DNA from: Streptomyces sp. JH14
GTDB taxonomy: Bacteria; Actinomycetota; Actinomycetes; Streptomycetales; Streptomycetaceae
NCBI RefSeq assembly: GCF_029428675.1
Contig: NZ_JAJNEL010000001.1
Span: 2,728,001 to 2,792,000, forward strand
DNA: 64,000 bases
Reading direction: 5' to 3'
Made by a program: the position numbers and the translations under genes
Shown here: positions 33,081 through 39,078 of the stretch, piece after piece
Position numbering within the stretch: position 1 is the first letter of the stretch
Layout of the letters: each line of letters begins with the position of its first letter
The notes under the pieces: generated by a model
Told to the model about the DNA's origin: nothing
Databases searched by the model: none
The model's input: the letters and a program-made list of their open reading frames with translations, nothing else

Positions 33081-33974
33081 TCAGTCCCCCACCTGAGCCC
33101 CACGCCCGGTGAGCGCCGCGAGAGAGTTCCGTACATGCGTCATGTGCGCCTGGACCTCCTCGCGGCCCTCCTCGTGCTCCCGCAGGACCCGCTCCGTCTC
33201 CCGAACCACGCGCTCCTCACGCACCCGCGCCGCCGCGATCAGCTCCGCACCCTGCGCCTCGGCGTCCTCCTGGCCGTGCCGCGCCGCCTCCACCGTCTCC
33301 GCCAGCGCACGCCGCGCCTCGGCCAGACGGGCCTCCGCCTGCTCGGTCAGCGCGTCGAGGCGCACGGCCTGCGCCGCCTCGGCGTCGGAAAGCTCACGCT
33401 CGGCCGCCTGCCACCGCTCGCTGTGCTCCTGCTCCTGATGGGCCAGCACGCCCGCGGTGCGGCGGCGCGTCCCGGACATCGCGGCCTCCGCCTCGTCGCG
33501 CACCTCCGCAGCACCCGTGCGGGCCGCGGCAAGCATCTCGTCGGCGCTCCGCTGCGCGGCCGACACCGTCCGGTCGGCCTGCGCCTCGGCACCCGACCGG
33601 ATCGCGTCGGAGTCCGCACGGGCCGAGTCGCGAAGCGCACGCCCAGCCGCAGCCGCCGCGTCCCGCAGCACCTGCGCCTCCTCCAGCGCGGAACTGCGGA
33701 CCGCTTCCGCCTCCCCCTCGGCGAGCGACAGGATCTCCTGCGCCCGCTCACCGAGCGAGTCGTACGTCGGCGGAGCGAGCACAGCCACGGCCTCGGCCAG
33801 CCGGGCCGACTCGGCCTCCAGCTCCTCGGCCCGCGCGGTCAGCCGGGACAGCATCGCCCACGCCGCATCCCGCTCCGCCGACAGACCGGCCACGGTCCCG
33901 TCCACCTGCTCCGGGCGGTAGCCACGTCCGCGCACCGCGACGAAGCCATGCGCGGACACCGGTGCAGCACTCAT
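33081..33974 (-). CDS. Long coiled-coil protein (so-called cellulose-binding/DivIVA-like)
   Basis: A 297-residue protein, almost entirely Ala/Glu/Arg-rich heptads from about residue 25 to 280, so an extended cytoplasmic coiled coil. The start (MSAAPVSAHGFVAVRGRGYR, then PEQVDGTVAGLSAERDAAW) resembles the DivIVA N-terminal membrane-recruiting region. In Streptomyces such proteins, often mislabelled cellulose-binding, relate to the DivIVA/Scy/FilP polarity and cytoskeletal group. ATG 33974 has GGAGAG. It stands alone, in the same direction as the SUKH cluster gene upstream but behind a hairpin. Confidence 0.82.
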   Translation of the reverse strand: MSAAPVSAHGFVAVRGRGYRPEQVDGTVAGLSAERDAAWAMLSRLTARAEELEAESARLAEAVAVLAPPTYDSLGERAQEILSLAEGEAEAVRSSALEEAQVLRDAAAAAGRALRDSARADSDAIRSGAEAQADRTVSAAQRSADEMLAAARTGAAEVRDEAEAAMSGTRRRTAGVLAHQEQEHSERWQAAERELSDAEAAQAVRLDALTEQAEARLAEARRALAETVEAARHGQEDAEAQGAELIAAARVREERVVRETERVLREHEEGREEVQAHMTHVRNSLAALTGRGAQVGD

Positions 33975-34109
33975 CCTTGACGCCTCTCTCCGACTCTCCG
34001 ACCACCAAGCAATACGCCAAGGATGCGGCAATTAGCCGAGAAGTCCGAATCGTTTCGCTTCTTTCCGGACGGAAGCGACGGGTCTCACAGGACCGGCACG
34101 CACACAGAA

Positions 34110-34160: not shown

Positions 34161-36713
34161 TCAGATCAGGCCGTCCCACATCTGCTCCAGCAGAACCGAC
34201 CACCAGCTCTCCGGCGACGCCAGCGCCGCCGCGTCCAGCGCCACCAGCTGCGCCTGGAAATCGACCGTCCAGCGACCCGCCTGCTCCGGATTCAGACCGA
34301 AACGCAGCCGCCACATCCGGCCCAGCAGCGCCATCGAACGCACGAACTCCGGCAGCCCGGTGTTCACGAACTGCGGCGGCACCGACTGCCCACCGGGACC
34401 CGCCTCGACCGGCACGGCCACGATGTTCGCCGTGCCGTACTGCACACAGATCGCCCGCCCGAAGTCGGACCCCATGACGAGATACGACCCCGCATCGGCA
34501 GCCGGCTGCACCTGCCGCTGCACAGCCAGCTCCGCCAGCGTCGGCACGACCGGCTGACCCGGCTGCGCCCAGAAGAACGGCCCGAAGTCGGCGGGCAGAC
34601 CCGCCCACACCAACGTCCGCGCCACGATCTCCGGCACCCCCTGCCGGGACACCGCACGCTGATCGAAACGGAGCACACCCTGCGGCCCGAAGGACTGCAG
34701 CAGCTCCTCCGCGACGGCCTCCGGTGGGATCGGCATCGTCGGCGGCATCTGCGGCAACGGGGCCCGCACCGGCGCCGGCCGCGCCGGACCGTCCGCCACC
34801 TGGTGCAGCTCGCCCTGGTGCGTGAGCAGATGCTGCATGCCCTGCTGACGGCTGGCGTGATCGGTGCCGTACGGAGCCACGCTGGTGATCCGGACCTGTG
34901 GCCAGGTCTCCCGGATCATCCGCGCGCAGTAGCCACCGGGCAGCTCGCACGACTCCAGCTCGGTGTGCAGCTCGATGACCTGCTGCGGCGGCACATTCAT
35001 GGCCCGCAGCTCGTGCAGCATCTGCCACTCGGGGTGCGGGGTGCCGGGCGCCGAGCGGCGGATCAACTGCTGCTCGCTGCCGTCGGGCGCGCGAAAACGC
35101 AGCACGGCCTGGTACCCGGGGCCGACGGTCGGCTGACCCGCCTGTGCCTGCGGATAGCCGTACGCCGGGGGCGGCGGGGTGTGCGGATTCGGCGGTACGG
35201 GACCGGCGGCGCCGACCGGCGGCACCCCGGGCGCACCGGGCGGACCCGGAGGCTGCGGAGCGGCCGGCCCGGCCTGGCCGGGACCCGCGAGCATCGTGGC
35301 GGCATGGTGCACACCGCCACCGGGCGGCGACGGGGGCGGCAGCGTGGAACCGGGCGGGCCGGAAGGCTGCGGAACACCGGGCGCACCGGGCGGACCCGGA
35401 GGCCGCGGCGCACTCGGACCACCCAGGCTCGGATCGGCCAGCACGGTCGCAGCGTGGTCGAAACCGCCACCGGGCGGCGGCGTCGAACCAGGAGGAACGG
35501 GCGGGCCGGAAGGCTGCGGAACACCGGGCGCACCCGGCGGACCCGGAGGCCGCGGCGCACTCGGACCACCCGGACCCGGATCGGCCAGCATCGTCGCGGC
35601 CTGGTCGAAACCGCCACCGGGCGGCGGCGTCGGACCAGGAGGAGCAGCAGGGGCAGGCGGCCCGGGAGGACCGGGCGGCTGAGGCGCACCCGGCGGACCG
35701 GCCTGCGAGACAAGCTGCGTCGGCACATAACCGCCCGCCGGAACACCGGGCGCACCCGGCCCCGAAGGCGGCGGCACCGGCGCACCCGGCCGGGCACCCG
35801 GCGTACCGGGAGCACCCGGCGGCGGCGGAGCCGTCGGACCGCCCCCACGCGCACCACGCGGCGGCCGCACGGCCTTGCTGGTCGCCGCATCCGCGATGTC
35901 ACCGCTCCCAGGACCGGCCGGCGCACCAGGACCCGGCGCACCCGGACCCTGCGGATTCAGCCCCGGAGCCACCGCCGTCCGCGGCAGCTGACTACCGCCG
36001 GACATCAGCGCGGTCGGCGCATCCGCCGACACCGCCGGCGGCGGAGCGCCTTCGTCATCGGCGCCCGAGAGCGGCGGCGCGAACACCGTCGCCGGCAGCT
36101 CGACCGCCCCGTCGTCGGAGTCCGCATTGGTGTCGGTCCCCGCCCACGGCGTCGACCCGCTCGGCGACGACGCCGGAACACCGTCCTGCGCCGTCGGCTC
36201 GTACGCGACCGGCCCACCAGGAGCCGACCACGGCGTCCCACCCGACGGCGCCCCCGAAGCATCCACAGCCTGAGGAGAAGCGGAGGAAGAAGACGGAGAA
36301 GGAGAGGGAGCCTCCCCCGAACGCTCCGCCCGGCGATCCGGAATCCCGAGCTTGTCCGCCGCCTCCTGGAGCCACTCCGGCGGACTCAACAGGAACGACG
36401 TCTGATTCAGATCGACACGCTGCGGCGGCTCCGGAGCCACCGGCGCCGCATCGACCGCGCCGTACTCCTCCTCGTACCGCCGTATCACCTCACCCACCGG
36501 CAACCCCGGCCACAACGTGGCCTCACCGCTGTCCCGCGCGATCACCAACCGCTGCCGGCCACCGTCCGAGACCGGACCCTCCGCACGGTCCTCGGCCCAC
36601 ACCACGAAACCCAGCTCGAACTCACGGACCCGCACCTCACGATGCTGATACGCGGGCACCTCACCGTTGACCCACTCGTCCGCCCGCTCCTGCGCCTGCG
36701 CGAAGGTCACCAT
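34161..36713 (-). CDS. Multidomain protein: N-terminal Imm35-like region, PPG linker, deaminase-like domain, SUKH-4
   Basis: An 850-residue protein. Residues 1-85 (EFELGFVVWAEDRA and LVIARDSGEATLWPGLPVGE) resemble YrhB/Imm35-type immunity domains. Residues about 85-525 are Pro/Gly/Ala-rich with imperfect repeats. About 530-640 fits the zinc-dependent nucleic-acid/nucleotide deaminase fold of polymorphic toxins: H560-P-E562 on the first helix, then C589-ELPGGY-C596 some 26 residues later, followed by RMIRETWPQVRITSV. The end, about 665-850, matches SUKH-4 (LPADFGPFFWAQPGQP). No signal peptide or export domain is seen. ATG 36713 with GGAGGGG, five bases after the SMI1 gene. Domain names come from pattern reading and need a profile search. 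Confidence 0.75.
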   Translation of the reverse strand: MVTFAQAQERADEWVNGEVPAYQHREVRVREFELGFVVWAEDRAEGPVSDGGRQRLVIARDSGEATLWPGLPVGEVIRRYEEEYGAVDAAPVAPEPPQRVDLNQTSFLLSPPEWLQEAADKLGIPDRRAERSGEAPSPSPSSSSASPQAVDASGAPSGGTPWSAPGGPVAYEPTAQDGVPASSPSGSTPWAGTDTNADSDDGAVELPATVFAPPLSGADDEGAPPPAVSADAPTALMSGGSQLPRTAVAPGLNPQGPGAPGPGAPAGPGSGDIADAATSKAVRPPRGARGGGPTAPPPPGAPGTPGARPGAPVPPPSGPGAPGVPAGGYVPTQLVSQAGPPGAPQPPGPPGPPAPAAPPGPTPPPGGGFDQAATMLADPGPGGPSAPRPPGPPGAPGVPQPSGPPVPPGSTPPPGGGFDHAATVLADPSLGGPSAPRPPGPPGAPGVPQPSGPPGSTLPPPSPPGGGVHHAATMLAGPGQAGPAAPQPPGPPGAPGVPPVGAAGPVPPNPHTPPPPAYGYPQAQAGQPTVGPGYQAVLRFRAPDGSEQQLIRRSAPGTPHPEWQMLHELRAMNVPPQQVIELHTELESCELPGGYCARMIRETWPQVRITSVAPYGTDHASRQQGMQHLLTHQGELHQVADGPARPAPVRAPLPQMPPTMPIPPEAVAEELLQSFGPQGVLRFDQRAVSRQGVPEIVARTLVWAGLPADFGPFFWAQPGQPVVPTLAELAVQRQVQPAADAGSYLVMGSDFGRAICVQYGTANIVAVPVEAGPGGQSVPPQFVNTGLPEFVRSMALLGRMWRLRFGLNPEQAGRWTVDFQAQLVALDAAALASPESWWSVLLEQMWDGLI
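35250..35690. repeat. Tandem repeats coding the PPG-rich linker
   Basis: A unit of about 147 bases recurs roughly three times. For example the blocks near 35352-35425 and 35499-35572 are almost identical. Each unit encodes GGG-F/V-x-x-AAT-M/V-LA-D/G-P, then GGPSAPRPPGPPGAPGV. Close identity between units points to recent slippage or gene conversion. Confidence 0.7.
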
Positions 36714-36718
36714 CGCGC

Positions 36719-37696
36719 TCACCCCTCCACCGGGACGGCGTACGCAAAGCCACCGTCCACCATCAGGTTCGCCACGGTCTCCAACTCCGGCGGATTGCCC
36801 GCCAACCGCTGCAGAAACGCGTCGAAGTCCGCACCGCACGGCAGCAACAGCCGGTCCACGCGCTCCTGCACACCCCAGCCGTCCCGATCCCGGGCATCGT
36901 CATACGCACAGAACCAGACCGAACCGACCCCGTCGCCCCGGACCTTCAGCGCGAGAATGCCGCCCTGAACGAAACCGACCCCCAGATAATCCTTGGTCAG
37001 ATGGTCCCGCAGGCACTTGTTCACATACACCAGGTCATTCACCGCGGCCTCATCGCGCACCGTGAAGAACGGCTGGTCGACCAGGAGACCCAGCTCCGCA
37101 TACAACGCCGCACCGACCGGAGCCGAACCACCCGCCGCCTTCAAGAACGAGCGATACGCACCCGGCAGCCGATACCCCAGATCCTCCTCCACACCCAGGA
37201 TCTGCTGCTCACCGACCGCCACCGACCCCTTCGGAAGCCGGAAGTGCGCAGGCCGGGTCTCCTGCAGCGGACGCGTACCCCGCTTGTTCTGATCGACCGC
37301 AGCCGTGGCCAGACCACCGTGATGCCGCAGCAACGCCTTGACCTCGACCGGAACGAGCTCCATCCGCCGGCCGCCCGGCACGTGATGCCAGGTCCAACCA
37401 TGCGGAGTGGCCACCGCCGGAATCGTGTCCCACAACTCATGACCGGCCGCCGCCAACGCCGCATTGGCCGAAACGTAATCGGTGAGCCTCAACTCATCCA
37501 CGCCGAAGCCCTGCGGAGGCTCCGCTATCTCGGCGGCGGCACGCGCATACGGCGCGAAAACCGGACAGCCGTTCTCGTCCACGCGCACACCCCTCGGGTG
37601 GCGCGACGCCCGGACCGGATCCGGGAAGTGCACGACCTGCCCGGCATAGGCCGCGTTCGGTGGCGCGGCTTGCTGCCCGAGCCGACCTGTCGTCAT
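36719..37696 (-). CDS. SMI1/KNR4 (SUKH-1) family protein
   Basis: A 325-residue cytoplasmic protein. The SUKH-1 signature lies in the C-terminal half: VEEDLGYRLPGAYRSFLKAAGG, and WFCAYDDARDRDGWG near the end. The first roughly 150 residues (SRHPRGVRVDENGCPVFAPY and YAR) are a lineage-specific N-terminal domain with a tRNA-synthetase-like or nuclease-toxin-fold flavour that I cannot assign. SUKH proteins are best known as immunity proteins against nuclease and deaminase toxins. ATG 37696 has AGGGGG. It lies five bases upstream of the SUKH-4/deaminase gene in one operon. Confidence 0.85.
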   Translation of the reverse strand: MTTGRLGQQAAPPNAAYAGQVVHFPDPVRASRHPRGVRVDENGCPVFAPYARAAAEIAEPPQGFGVDELRLTDYVSANAALAAAGHELWDTIPAVATPHGWTWHHVPGGRRMELVPVEVKALLRHHGGLATAAVDQNKRGTRPLQETRPAHFRLPKGSVAVGEQQILGVEEDLGYRLPGAYRSFLKAAGGSAPVGAALYAELGLLVDQPFFTVRDEAAVNDLVYVNKCLRDHLTKDYLGVGFVQGGILALKVRGDGVGSVWFCAYDDARDRDGWGVQERVDRLLLPCGADFDAFLQRLAGNPPELETVANLMVDGGFAYAVPVEG

Positions 37697-37824
37697 GGCG
37701 GTTGCCCCCTGCTGCGTCTGACCGATGAGGACCGACCTGCCCATGGGGGCGGTCCACGCACAGCCTATGCGGTGGCGCAACAGGGGGTCCCGCCCCTCCA
37801 CTTCACCCCCATCCCGATCACGAA

Positions 37825-37844
37825 CCGTCACGAGCCGGTGACGG
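37825..37844. promoter_or_regulatory. Inverted repeat in the SUKH/deaminase divergent region
   Basis: CCGTCAC and GTGACGG are exact complements with a six-base spacer, near the middle of the 301-base gap between the SMI1 gene (-) and the YwqJ-type gene (+). It is a candidate shared operator. No convincing promoter hexamers were found elsewhere in the gap. Confidence 0.4.
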
Positions 37845-37997
37845 AAAAGCGACGGTCCGGCCACTCCCCGCGACACGCAGACACGTTTCACCGCCCCAGC
37901 TTCCCCACCACCTGGCACATTTGGCAGGCTGTCACCGCAACCCGGGGACGTGCACACCTGCAGCTGCCGCTGCGGGCACGGGAGGGACATCCACACC

Positions 37998-38519
37998 ATG
38001 CACACAACACAAACAGTCACATCCGGGGACCCGCGCCTCAGCTGGAGCAGCACCGAGATCAGCCGCACACCCCGCCTGCACCACCGCCGCGACGGCATCC
38101 TGCCCGCCGTGGCCGCAGCGCTGTCCGTCCGCGGCGAGACACTGACCTGCACAGCGGGCAAAGGCGACCAACCGCCCGTACTCCACCCGCTCGTCCAGGA
38201 CTTCCTCGACACCCTCACCAGCAACCAGCGCGAACGCTTCACCGGCCGCTGCCCCGAAGCCATACTGCTCTCCCGACAACTCACCGCCGCCGAAACCGAA
38301 CGGTCCAAGCGCGCCCAGCGCAAACCGCTCACCAACGGCGAAGCCCGCCGCGCACTCAAACACGCACGGCTCACCGCACGCCGCATCCGCGAGGACGGCG
38401 ACCCCCTGCACGGCAGCTACGCACCACCCTGCCGCTCCTGCACGGCGATGCTCGCCCACTTCGGCGTACGCCCCGTCGACCTCACCACCAGCGCGGCAAC
38501 CACCGCCGAGAAGGGCTGA
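37998..38519 (+). CDS. YwqJ-type putative deaminase
   Basis: A 173-residue protein with the YwqJ-deaminase layout: ISRTPRLHHRRDGILPAVAA near the start, then FTGRCPEAILLSRQL giving a C85-x-E87 version of the H/C-x-E motif, and later YAPPCRSC giving P-C145-x-x-C148. Together these supply three zinc ligands and the catalytic Glu of the cytidine-deaminase fold. No toxin delivery domain is fused. ATG 37998 has GGAGGG upstream, a little far; GTG 37950 is possible but adds an unlikely Cys/His-rich tail. The SUKH-3 gene follows 10 bases later, the usual toxin-immunity order. Confidence 0.82.
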   Translation: MHTTQTVTSGDPRLSWSSTEISRTPRLHHRRDGILPAVAAALSVRGETLTCTAGKGDQPPVLHPLVQDFLDTLTSNQRERFTGRCPEAILLSRQLTAAETERSKRAQRKPLTNGEARRALKHARLTARRIREDGDPLHGSYAPPCRSCTAMLAHFGVRPVDLTTSAATTAEKG

Positions 38520-38529
38520 TCGCGCGCCG

Positions 38530-39078
38530 ATGCACGACCGAACCGACCAACCCGACCTGCCCGAACAGGCCGACCGCACCACCCACGCGGACCGCACCGC
38601 CACGACCACCCGCTTCCCCGCCGACGTCGACGCCGCCCTGCGCACAGCAGGCTGGCAGCCCGGCCGCTGGGACATCCGGCAAGCAGAGGAATGGGCCGAC
38701 GCACTGCGCGCCCACGCCTCCCCCGCCGGCCACCAGCACGCAGTCTTCCCCGCAGCCGTCGAGGCATGGGCCGAATTCGGCGGCCTGCACATCACCGCCG
38801 CCGCACCCGGGCGGCACATCGCCCCCGCCTCCGTACACATCGACCCACTCAGCGCCCTGCACATGGCCCGCACACTCGCCGACCTCGGACGAGCACTGGA
38901 AACCGAAGTCAGCCCGCTCGGTGAAGAAGGCGACGGACAGGCAGTCCTCGCCATCGACATCGAAGGACGCGTCTACAGCATCGACCACACCGGGGACTGG
39001 TACCTCGGCGCCGGCATCGACGAAGCACTGGCAACGCTGGTCGGAGGAATCCAGCCGGAACGGCTGACGACTGGCTGA
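38530..39078 (+). CDS. SUKH-3 family immunity-like protein
   Basis: A 182-residue protein fitting the SUKH-3 pattern: TTRFPADVDAALRTAGWQPG, then FPAAVEAWAEFGGL, and IEGRVYSIDHTGDWYLGAGI near the end. SUKH-3 members are commonly encoded beside YwqJ-type deaminase toxins as their immunity proteins, exactly the order seen here. The first roughly 28 residues are a Thr/Asp-rich tail. The ribosome site is weak and the gene follows within 10 bases, so coupling to the deaminase gene is likely. Confidence 0.85.
   Translation: MHDRTDQPDLPEQADRTTHADRTATTTRFPADVDAALRTAGWQPGRWDIRQAEEWADALRAHASPAGHQHAVFPAAVEAWAEFGGLHITAAAPGRHIAPASVHIDPLSALHMARTLADLGRALETEVSPLGEEGDGQAVLAIDIEGRVYSIDHTGDWYLGAGIDEALATLVGGIQPERLTTG

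What the first reader, a model, noticed from the sequence alone, without database searches (positions are those of the whole stretch)
34161..36713. Toxin-like deaminase and SUKH-4 immunity domain fused in one polypeptide
Seen: H560-P-E562 followed 26 residues later by C589, with C596 after a six-residue gap, then a SUKH-4 domain. The usual zinc pair is C-x-x-C, so C-x6-C is a variant. Toxin and immunity fused in one chain suggests self-inhibition or a sensor that is released by a trigger.
Basis: partly seen in the sequence, partly recalled or inferred. Interest (0 to 1): 0.65.

Follow-up and report, generated by a model that had tools for sequence, protein, structure and literature searches.

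The report
Streptomyces deaminase fused to SUKH-4 domain
Most Streptomyces-family genomes examined appear to carry one long protein that joins a toxin-type deaminase, with its presumed zinc-binding residues intact, to the kind of domain that normally neutralises such toxins; it looks like a tamed, self-restrained enzyme rather than a weapon, but no activity has been measured.

Summary
Confirmed. Minus strand 34161-36713 encodes 850 aa: a weakly Imm35-like N-terminal domain, a long Pro/Ala/Gly-rich arm, a PF14440 (XOO_2897-type) deaminase (531-631) and SUKH-4 (668-844). H560, E562, C589 and C596 are invariant in 124 of 124 distinct orthologues. C-x6-C is the branch's norm (8 of 8 reversed-order fusions); eight T7SS-type toxins have C-x5-C or C-x8-C. 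The gene does not meet the tests for a polymorphic toxin. It is near-core and vertically kept: strong match in 184 of 199 Streptomyces and 192 of 200 Streptomycetaceae genomes. It sits in a four-gene island (66 of 80 loci; the other 14 are short on the upstream side): a WHH-nuclease--SUKH-1 fusion upstream and a divergent YwqJ deaminase + SUKH-3 pair. A sister family with the same domain order has lost the zinc cysteines (7 of 7), so the fusion does not need them; their retention here argues for catalysis. Deaminase and SUKH-4 trees show the same groups. Best reading: an intracellular deaminase held off in cis by its SUKH-4 domain, with the N-terminal domain and Thr-motif arm as candidate input. 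Cis-inhibition, trigger, substrate and zinc binding are inferred, not shown.

The parts
34161..36713 (-). 850-aa gene: NTD -- Pro/Ala/Gly arm -- XOO_2897-type deaminase -- SUKH-4
   Evidence: ORF and translation; Pfam; 129 orthologous ORFs
36453..36713 (-). N-terminal domain, residues 1-87, weakly Imm35-like, predicted a-b-b-b-b-a
   Evidence: 29 orthologues aligned; 0 of 29 match Imm35, but 3 of 12 members of the wider alignment A5 do, best E 0.0033, the window's own not; hhalign 79.6%; AF2 mean pLDDT 75.5 over residues 1-100
35139..36452 (-). Pro/Ala/Gly-rich arm, residues 88-525, with recurring Thr motifs such as AATMLA, ATVFAPP, PTALM, PTQLV
   Evidence: A[AE]T[MVIL][LF]A in 75 of 78 linkers over 250 aa, mean 2.1 copies, against 0.3% of shuffles; motifs were picked from the same, related sequences
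34821..35123 (-). Deaminase domain, residues 531-631 (PF14440)
   Evidence: E 3.2e-36; matches to solved deaminases, best Foldseek E 4.4e-3, best VIA Z 7.2
35028..35036 (-). Codons of H560-P561-E562 (zinc ligand and catalytic glutamate by analogy)
   Evidence: invariant in 124 of 124; codons checked
34926..34949 (-). Codons C589 to C596 (C-x6-C, zinc ligands by analogy)
   Evidence: invariant in 124 of 124; codons checked
34182..34712 (-). SUKH-4 domain, residues 668-844 (PF14435)
   Evidence: E 4.8e-45; the only SUKH-4 match found in the window's genome
36719..37696 (-). Upstream gene, probably co-transcribed (5 nt between its stop and the deaminase ATG): WHH/colicin-DNase-like nuclease fused to SUKH-1, 325 aa
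   Evidence: Pfam WHH 4.1e-14, Colicin-DNase 2.2e-9, SMI1_KNR4 1.3e-9; H104 and H105 each in 67 of 68 orthologues; gap checked
37950..38519 (+). Divergent YwqJ-like deaminase (likely start 37998), C101-P-E103 and C161-x2-C164
   Evidence: Pfam PF14431 9.2e-30; of rows covering the site, C101 and E103 59 of 59, C161 59 of 62, C164 61 of 63
38530..39078 (+). SUKH-3 immunity-type protein, neighbour of YwqJ
   Evidence: Pfam PF14433 1.5e-57
37760..37842 (-). Conserved elements upstream of the nuclease/deaminase operon: GTCA-N7-GTGAC-N5-GTnA (37817-37842) and TAGGCTGT (37760-37767)
   Evidence: 58 of 67 and 65 of 67 upstream regions; coordinates

Best explanation
This is a domesticated, probably intracellular deaminase of Streptomycetaceae that carries its own restraint. 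The deaminase domain is expected to bind one zinc through H560, C589 and C596, use E562 for catalysis, and act on a nucleic acid or nucleotide. The SUKH-4 domain at the C-terminus, which elsewhere is encoded as a separate immunity-type gene right after toxins with the same kind of deaminase, binds it in cis and keeps it off. The weakly Imm35-like N-terminal domain and the long arm with recurring Thr motifs are the candidate input side: a partner, phosphorylation or cleavage could displace SUKH-4. It is probably made from an operon with a second toxin-like enzyme tied to a SUKH domain (WHH nuclease--SUKH-1), next to a YwqJ deaminase with SUKH-3. Shown: architecture, conservation, island, branch history. 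Inferred: catalysis, cis-inhibition, trigger, substrate, intracellular action.
For: Both domains are far above Pfam cut-offs. Site residues invariant in 124 of 124 distinct orthologues. A sister family with the same NTD--deaminase--SUKH-4 order has lost both cysteines in 7 of 7 and the histidine in 6 of 7, so the fusion survives without the zinc site and its retention here points to catalysis. Purifying selection: dN 0.004-0.124 against dS 0.33-0.73 in the deaminase part, 15 pairs. Near-core: match at E 3.1e-29 or better in 184 of 199 Streptomyces genomes, strong match in 192 of 200 Streptomycetaceae genomes. Four-gene island in 66 of 80 loci. Deaminase and SUKH-4 trees give the same four groups. 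No secretion domain in Pfam and no hydrophobic N-terminus. Solved deaminases head the fold matches.
Against: No activity, zinc binding or inhibition was measured. The structure model is moderate and tells nothing about how the two domains sit. Zinc ligands can be kept for folding. Eight of 200 Streptomycetaceae genomes lack a clear intact core copy: three of genus g237, four of g240 (which have only reversed-order or toxin-type copies) and G646, where the copy is broken across frames. 13 of 199 Streptomyces genomes have no match and two only a weak one, though 10 of the 13 are drafts of 540 or more contigs. The Imm35 link is weak and the Thr motifs were picked by eye. Most of the 192 were judged by score, not inspected one by one.
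Confidence: 0.5

Rival explanations
1. Immunity or decoy protein. The deaminase part is bait or a pairing surface, and SUKH-4 (with the Imm35-like NTD) neutralises incoming XOO_2897-type toxins, as in polyimmunity proteins.
For: A sister family with the same architecture is dead by sequence. Mobile Streptomyces cassettes carry WXG100--XOO_2897 proteins that could be the targets. PMC3482391 describes polyimmunity proteins with SUKH as a common part (passages); PMC7159879 mentions inactive enzyme versions acting as decoys (passages).
Against: All four site residues are kept in 124 of 124, which a decoy need not keep, as the dead sister family shows. An antidote to fast-changing toxins would be expected to change too; this one is conserved.
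Confidence: 0.2
2. A constitutive housekeeping enzyme for nucleotides or RNA. The SUKH-4 domain is a scaffold or regulator, and the deaminase is not toxic even when freed.
For: Near-universal in the family and under purifying selection. SUKH domains also serve non-immunity roles in eukaryotes (established knowledge, Smi1/Knr4; from no call).
Against: The nearest relatives found lie beside toxin/immunity genes, and the island holds two further toxin-type enzymes, each with a SUKH partner.
Confidence: 0.18
3. A delivered effector that travels with its own immunity domain and is freed in the target cell.
For: Related deaminases are parts of WXG100 proteins; the long Pro-rich arm could be a delivery spacer.
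Against: No WXG100 or other secretion domain in Pfam at E up to 1, no hydrophobic N-terminal segment, the toxin-type domain is not C-terminal, and the domain does not vary between related species.
Confidence: 0.1
4. A decaying toxin relic.
For: Only the existence of the dead sister family and of one broken copy in a low-completeness assembly, G646.
Against: Open frames, invariant site residues and low dN/dS in the orthologues.
Confidence: 0.02

Closest known systems
XOO_2897-like deaminase domains, PF14440
   Same: Same domain family, HxE plus two cysteines; WXG100-type proteins with this domain occur in Streptomyces, in the three plasmid loci examined with a SUKH-4 gene right after them.
   Different: There the domain ends a WXG100-type protein with C-x5-C or C-x8-C in the 8 examined. 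Here it is internal, C-x6-C, followed by SUKH-4 in the same chain, and conserved across a family.
SUKH-4 immunity proteins, PF14435
   Same: Complete domain, E 4.8e-45.
   Different: A free gene in the toxin loci; here the C-terminal part of the enzyme's own chain, and in the tree all 36 fused copies stand apart from the 12 free ones, 100/96.
Polyimmunity proteins and SUKH fusions (Zhang et al. 2012, PMC3482391, passages seen)
   Same: SUKH joined to other conflict-system domains; its table notes occasional fusions of SUKH to toxins, e.g. Tox-GHH, and lists XOO2897 and YwqJ deaminases with SUKH.
   Different: The passages I saw do not describe a deaminase--SUKH-4 chain kept as a near-core gene with its active site intact.
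UmbC1 umbrella toxin of S. coelicolor (PMC11062931, passages seen)
   Same: A Streptomyces deaminase-type toxin domain, reported there to cause C-G to T-A mutations.
   Different: A secreted particle toxin with a separate Imm1-family immunity protein; I did not compare its deaminase with this one.

Membership tests
XOO_2897-like deaminase (PF14440) | Profile match above the curated cut-off over the whole domain | tested here: met
   123.9 bits against a cut-off of 27, profile positions 1-100 of 101
XOO_2897-like deaminase (PF14440) | HxE and two cysteines of the deaminase zinc site | tested here: met
   124 of 124 distinct orthologues
XOO_2897-like deaminase (PF14440) | Cytidine-deaminase fold | tested here: inconclusive
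   Foldseek best E 4.4e-3, none at 1e-3, top 28 rows all deaminases; VIA best Z 7.2, none at 8, 47 of the 50 rows shown are deaminase or RibD entries by title; model mean pLDDT 61
XOO_2897-like deaminase (PF14440) | Zinc binding and deaminase activity | not testable with these tools
   needs protein
SUKH-4 immunity (PF14435) | Profile match above cut-off | tested here: met
   154.3 bits against 25.5, profile positions 3-179 of 179
SUKH-4 immunity (PF14435) | Neutralises a cognate toxin | not testable with these tools
   needs protein or cells
Polymorphic toxin system | N-terminal trafficking domain or secretion signal | tested here: not met
   none in Pfam at E up to 1; highest 19-residue hydropathy in the first 60 residues -0.03
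Polymorphic toxin system | C-terminal toxin domain with a separate immunity gene after it | tested here: not met
   deaminase is internal and SUKH-4 is in the same chain
Polymorphic toxin system | Variation of the toxin domain between related strains | tested here: not met
   deaminase part 85-99% identical in 15 species pairs; near-core. Strains of one species were not compared
Polyimmunity protein | Two or more immunity domains in one chain | tested here: inconclusive
   SUKH-4 clear; NTD only weakly Imm35-like: 0 of 29, 3 of 12 at best E 0.0033, hhalign 79.6%

The most novel reading that the evidence does not exclude
Streptomycetaceae keep, in their near-core genome, an intracellular island of toxin-type enzymes each tied to its own SUKH antidote (two in the same chain, one as a neighbouring gene). 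It would be a built-in, signal-released nucleic-acid attack device for development, programmed hyphal death or phage defence, with the N-terminal domain and Thr-motif arm of the deaminase as a switch.
Probability: 0.3. Interest if true: 0.85.

Novelty: new variant of a known kind. Interest (0 to 1): 0.6.

Why it matters
Toxin and antidote domains are usually separate and fast-changing. Here they are one chain, kept with an intact active site across a bacterial family, beside a second such fusion. A sister family that is dead by sequence and a reversed-order family serve as natural controls. If the deaminase is active and held in cis, Streptomyces would offer a clean system for how weapons are tamed into cell-own switches, and a naturally caged deaminase.

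Tried and rejected
Rejected: decaying relic; canonical polymorphic toxin (no trafficking domain, not C-terminal, not variable in the species compared); C-x6-C as a private oddity.

Led nowhere: NCBIfam gave nothing for the deaminase--SUKH-4 at E up to 1 or for WHH--SUKH-1, YwqJ and SUKH-3 at 0.1; PADLOC gave nothing at 0.01 for these four or three plasmid proteins. No convincing sequence relative among solved structures: best E 0.51 for the deaminase--SUKH-4 part, 0.92 and none for the NTD. Foldseek on the NTD model: best E 0.09, rows of mixed kinds. The VIA table for the main model covers only the deaminase part; SUKH-4 was barely tested there. The motif GTCAC-N6-GTGAC-N5-GTNAC with one mismatch has three places in the genome; at the two others I saw no obviously related gene. 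A plasmid search found only 4 records, all Streptomyces, of which I examined 3. One viral-collection locus came back.

Papers: nine searches; in their listings and the passages I opened I saw no description of this fusion, and 'SUKH-4' with 'Streptomyces' gave 0 papers. Iyer et al. 2011 (deaminase fold) and Zhang et al. 2011 (SUKH) are not held and may mention such fusions.

Weak spots in my own counts: the deaminase tree warns of long branches meeting between dead family and core; core+dead has 92/73 and the reversed group 81/66 there, against 96/94 and 94/88 in the SUKH-4 tree. Core rows in both trees are 21 picked by me. A linker range printed contains an impossible negative value (a mis-paired row); for the arm I use only, which drop linkers of 100 and 250 aa or less. 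One search compares 54 of the 81 YwqJ genomes, those whose deaminase place I had in the listing. A note in the notebook gives the motif-to-TAGGCTGT distance as 64-65 bp; that is the commonest value, the window's own is 75.
Full report
What is there. The minus-strand ORF 36713-34161 encodes 850 aa. Pfam finds a PF14440 XOO_2897-type deaminase at 531-631 (E 3.2e-36) and a PF14435 SUKH-4 domain at 668-844 (E 4.8e-45) and nothing else at E up to 1. The chain also has a conserved N-terminal domain of about 87 residues and an arm of about 440 residues rich in Pro, Ala and Gly.

Conservation. In 129 orthologous ORFs (124 distinct, the window's own included; my cut-off 130 bits, four lower relatives set aside) every one reads HPE-x26-C-x6-C; H560, P561, E562, H583, E585, C589, C596, Y615 and G616 are invariant. 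In 79 distinct ORFs of the 80 named loci, 324-329 residues follow from the start of the deaminase to the stop, the window having 325, so by length the SUKH-4 part is always fused; 37 of them were aligned through it, the window included. In 15 pairs dN is 0.004-0.124 and dS 0.33-0.73 in the deaminase part, 0.021-0.143 and 0.34-0.87 in SUKH-4 (rough in such GC-rich genes).

Distribution. PF14440 matches occur in 186 of 199 Streptomyces genomes, 184 of them at E 3.1e-29 or better, and in 198 of 200 Streptomycetaceae genomes, 17 of 17 genera. In 193 of the 200 the best match is at E 1.2e-28 or better; I count 192, leaving out G646, whose best copy in a later search is a reversed-order fusion and whose core copy is broken across frames in a 76% complete assembly. 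The seven others are three genomes of g237 and four of g240. All four g240 genomes hold a reversed-order fusion, three of them also a toxin-type copy with a free SUKH-4 ORF; in g237 two genomes have no match and one has a weak match in a 3954-residue open frame. Of the 13 Streptomyces genomes without a match, 10 have 540 or more contigs, and three have 2, 60 and 120; the latter are better candidates for true loss. Most genomes were judged by score, not one by one. In a phylum-wide sample 14 of 396 matched, 12 of the window's genus and 2 weakly, below cut-off. In a class-wide sample with my own profile 34 of 296 matched, 28 of the window's genus and 6 of two other families, f89 and f90. YwqJ (PF14431) matches in 81 of 81 Streptomycetaceae genomes, 17 of 17 genera, g237 and g240 included.

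The island. Immediately upstream, 5 nt between its stop and the ATG of the deaminase gene, lies a 325-aa fusion of a WHH/colicin-DNase-like nuclease with SUKH-1; divergently there is a YwqJ deaminase followed by SUKH-3. All four genes are found in 66 of 80 loci; the other 14 are loci with little or no DNA on the upstream side. In 54 genomes for which I had both places, 48 have deaminase and YwqJ on one contig, all 48 divergent, 47 within 10 kb and one 31 kb apart. Site residues are kept in the neighbours too: WHH H104 and H105 in 67 of 68 each; YwqJ C101 and E103 in 59 of 59, C161 in 59 of 62, C164 in 61 of 63 of the rows covering them.

Relatives that act as controls. A plasmid search gave 4 records, all Streptomyces. 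The three examined hold a WXG100-like protein with a C-terminal PF14440 domain, a SUKH-4 gene right after it, and, a little upstream, a short fusion in the reverse order, SUKH-4 then deaminase, and a further gene with weak WD40 matches (two) or NTPase-type matches (one). A viral-collection contig and Streptomyces chromosomes have similar sets. Of the 8 toxin-type proteins, 7 were scanned and all 7 have WXG100_2 above cut-off. The 8 reversed fusions keep HxE and C-x6-C; the 8 toxins keep HxE, with C-x5-C in 5 and C-x8-C in 3; a further short member, L098, has C-x6-C. Seven proteins have the same NTD--deaminase--SUKH-4 order but lack the long arm; both cysteines are lost in 7 of 7, the histidine in 6 of 7, the glutamate in none. 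Four come from family f89 (unnamed), three from two genomes of the window's genus. These are the ones I fetched, not a census.

Trees. In a tree of 44 deaminase domains the four groups (core 21, picked from 124; dead 7; reversed 8; toxin 8) each form one side of a branch. All fused forms stand apart from the toxins at 100/99; core with dead has 92/73 and a long-branch warning, reversed 81/66. The SUKH-4 tree of 48 rows gives the same scheme: free against fused at 100/96, core plus dead at 96/94, reversed 94/88. So the two domains appear to have diverged together whatever their order, as expected of a cognate pair. Core branches are short; toxin branches long.

Structure. AF2 on residues 526-850 with 37 sequences, all at least 83% identical to the query, gave mean pLDDT 61.3 and pTM 0.50. 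The order of elements fits a deaminase: HPE at the start of the first helix, C589 after the third strand, C596 at the start of the next helix; the loop between the cysteines is under pLDDT 50. Foldseek gave no hit at E 1e-3, but its top 28 rows are APOBEC, cytidine, blasticidin-S or DddA deaminases. VIA-align gave Z up to 7.2, none at 8; 47 of the 50 rows shown are deaminase or RibD entries by title, and the tool warns that such Z may mean only a common arrangement.

N-terminal domain and arm. The NTD is shared with the dead family, 35-46% identical. None of 29 core members matches Imm35; 3 of 12 in the wider alignment do, best E 0.0033, the window's own not; a profile comparison with five Streptomyces Imm35-type proteins gives 79.6%. 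AF2 gives a-b-b-b-b-a at mean pLDDT 75.5; no convincing fold match. The arm varies in length but keeps short Thr motifs: the AATMLA type in 75 of 78 linkers, about two copies each, TSFLLxPPEWL in 66, ATVFAPP in 62, PTALM in 54, PTQLV in 51, DxADAATSKA in 50, YEPTAxxGV in 31, against near zero in shuffles. The patterns were picked from these related sequences, so the contrast shows conservation, not function; that they are phosphorylation or docking sites is my guess.

How it most likely works. Kept active site, kept partner domain, no recognised export signal, an operon with another enzyme tied to a SUKH domain: the simplest account is a deaminase used inside the producing cell and restrained in cis by its SUKH-4 domain, with the NTD and arm as input. 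That SUKH-4 restrains it is inferred from its place beside free toxins of the same family; trigger and substrate are unknown. The main rival is an immunity or decoy protein; the dead sister family may be just that, but the core gene keeps what a decoy could lose.

Known or new. PMC3482391 (passages) lists XOO2897 and YwqJ deaminases with SUKH, describes polyimmunity proteins and notes occasional SUKH--toxin fusions. PMC9846239 (one passage) calls XOO_2897 a predicted effector. PMC11062931 (passages) reports a deaminase toxin in S. coelicolor umbrella particles with a separate immunity protein. PMC7159879 (passages) mentions inactive enzymes as decoys. The two 2011 papers that I recall as defining these families could not be read. 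I therefore file it as a new variant of a known kind.

Noticed in passing
L138, L139, L140, L147, L172, L173, L177, L178: A recurring Streptomyces set: WXG100--XOO_2897 deaminase protein (WXG100_2 in 7 of 7 scanned), free SUKH-4-type ORF(s) and a reversed SUKH-4--deaminase fusion; in the three plasmid loci also a gene with weak WD40 or NTPase-type matches.
   Followed up: partly
L168-L171, L174-L176: A family with the same NTD--deaminase--SUKH-4 order whose zinc cysteines are gone in 7 of 7: candidate pseudo-deaminases, in actinomycete family f89 and two genomes of the window's genus.
   Followed up: partly
window 36719-37696 (-): A second toxin--immunity fusion, WHH nuclease with SUKH-1, conserved beside the deaminase gene.
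   Followed up: partly
window 37817-37842 and 37760-37767 (-): Operator-like GTCA-N7-GTGAC-N5-GTnA in 58 of 67 upstream regions and TAGGCTGT (-10-like) in 65 of 67; the regulator is unknown.
   Followed up: partly
window 33081-34031 (-): Coiled-coil-like protein with a weak DivIVA match, below cut-off; a relative was found in 75 of the 80 loci.
   Followed up: no
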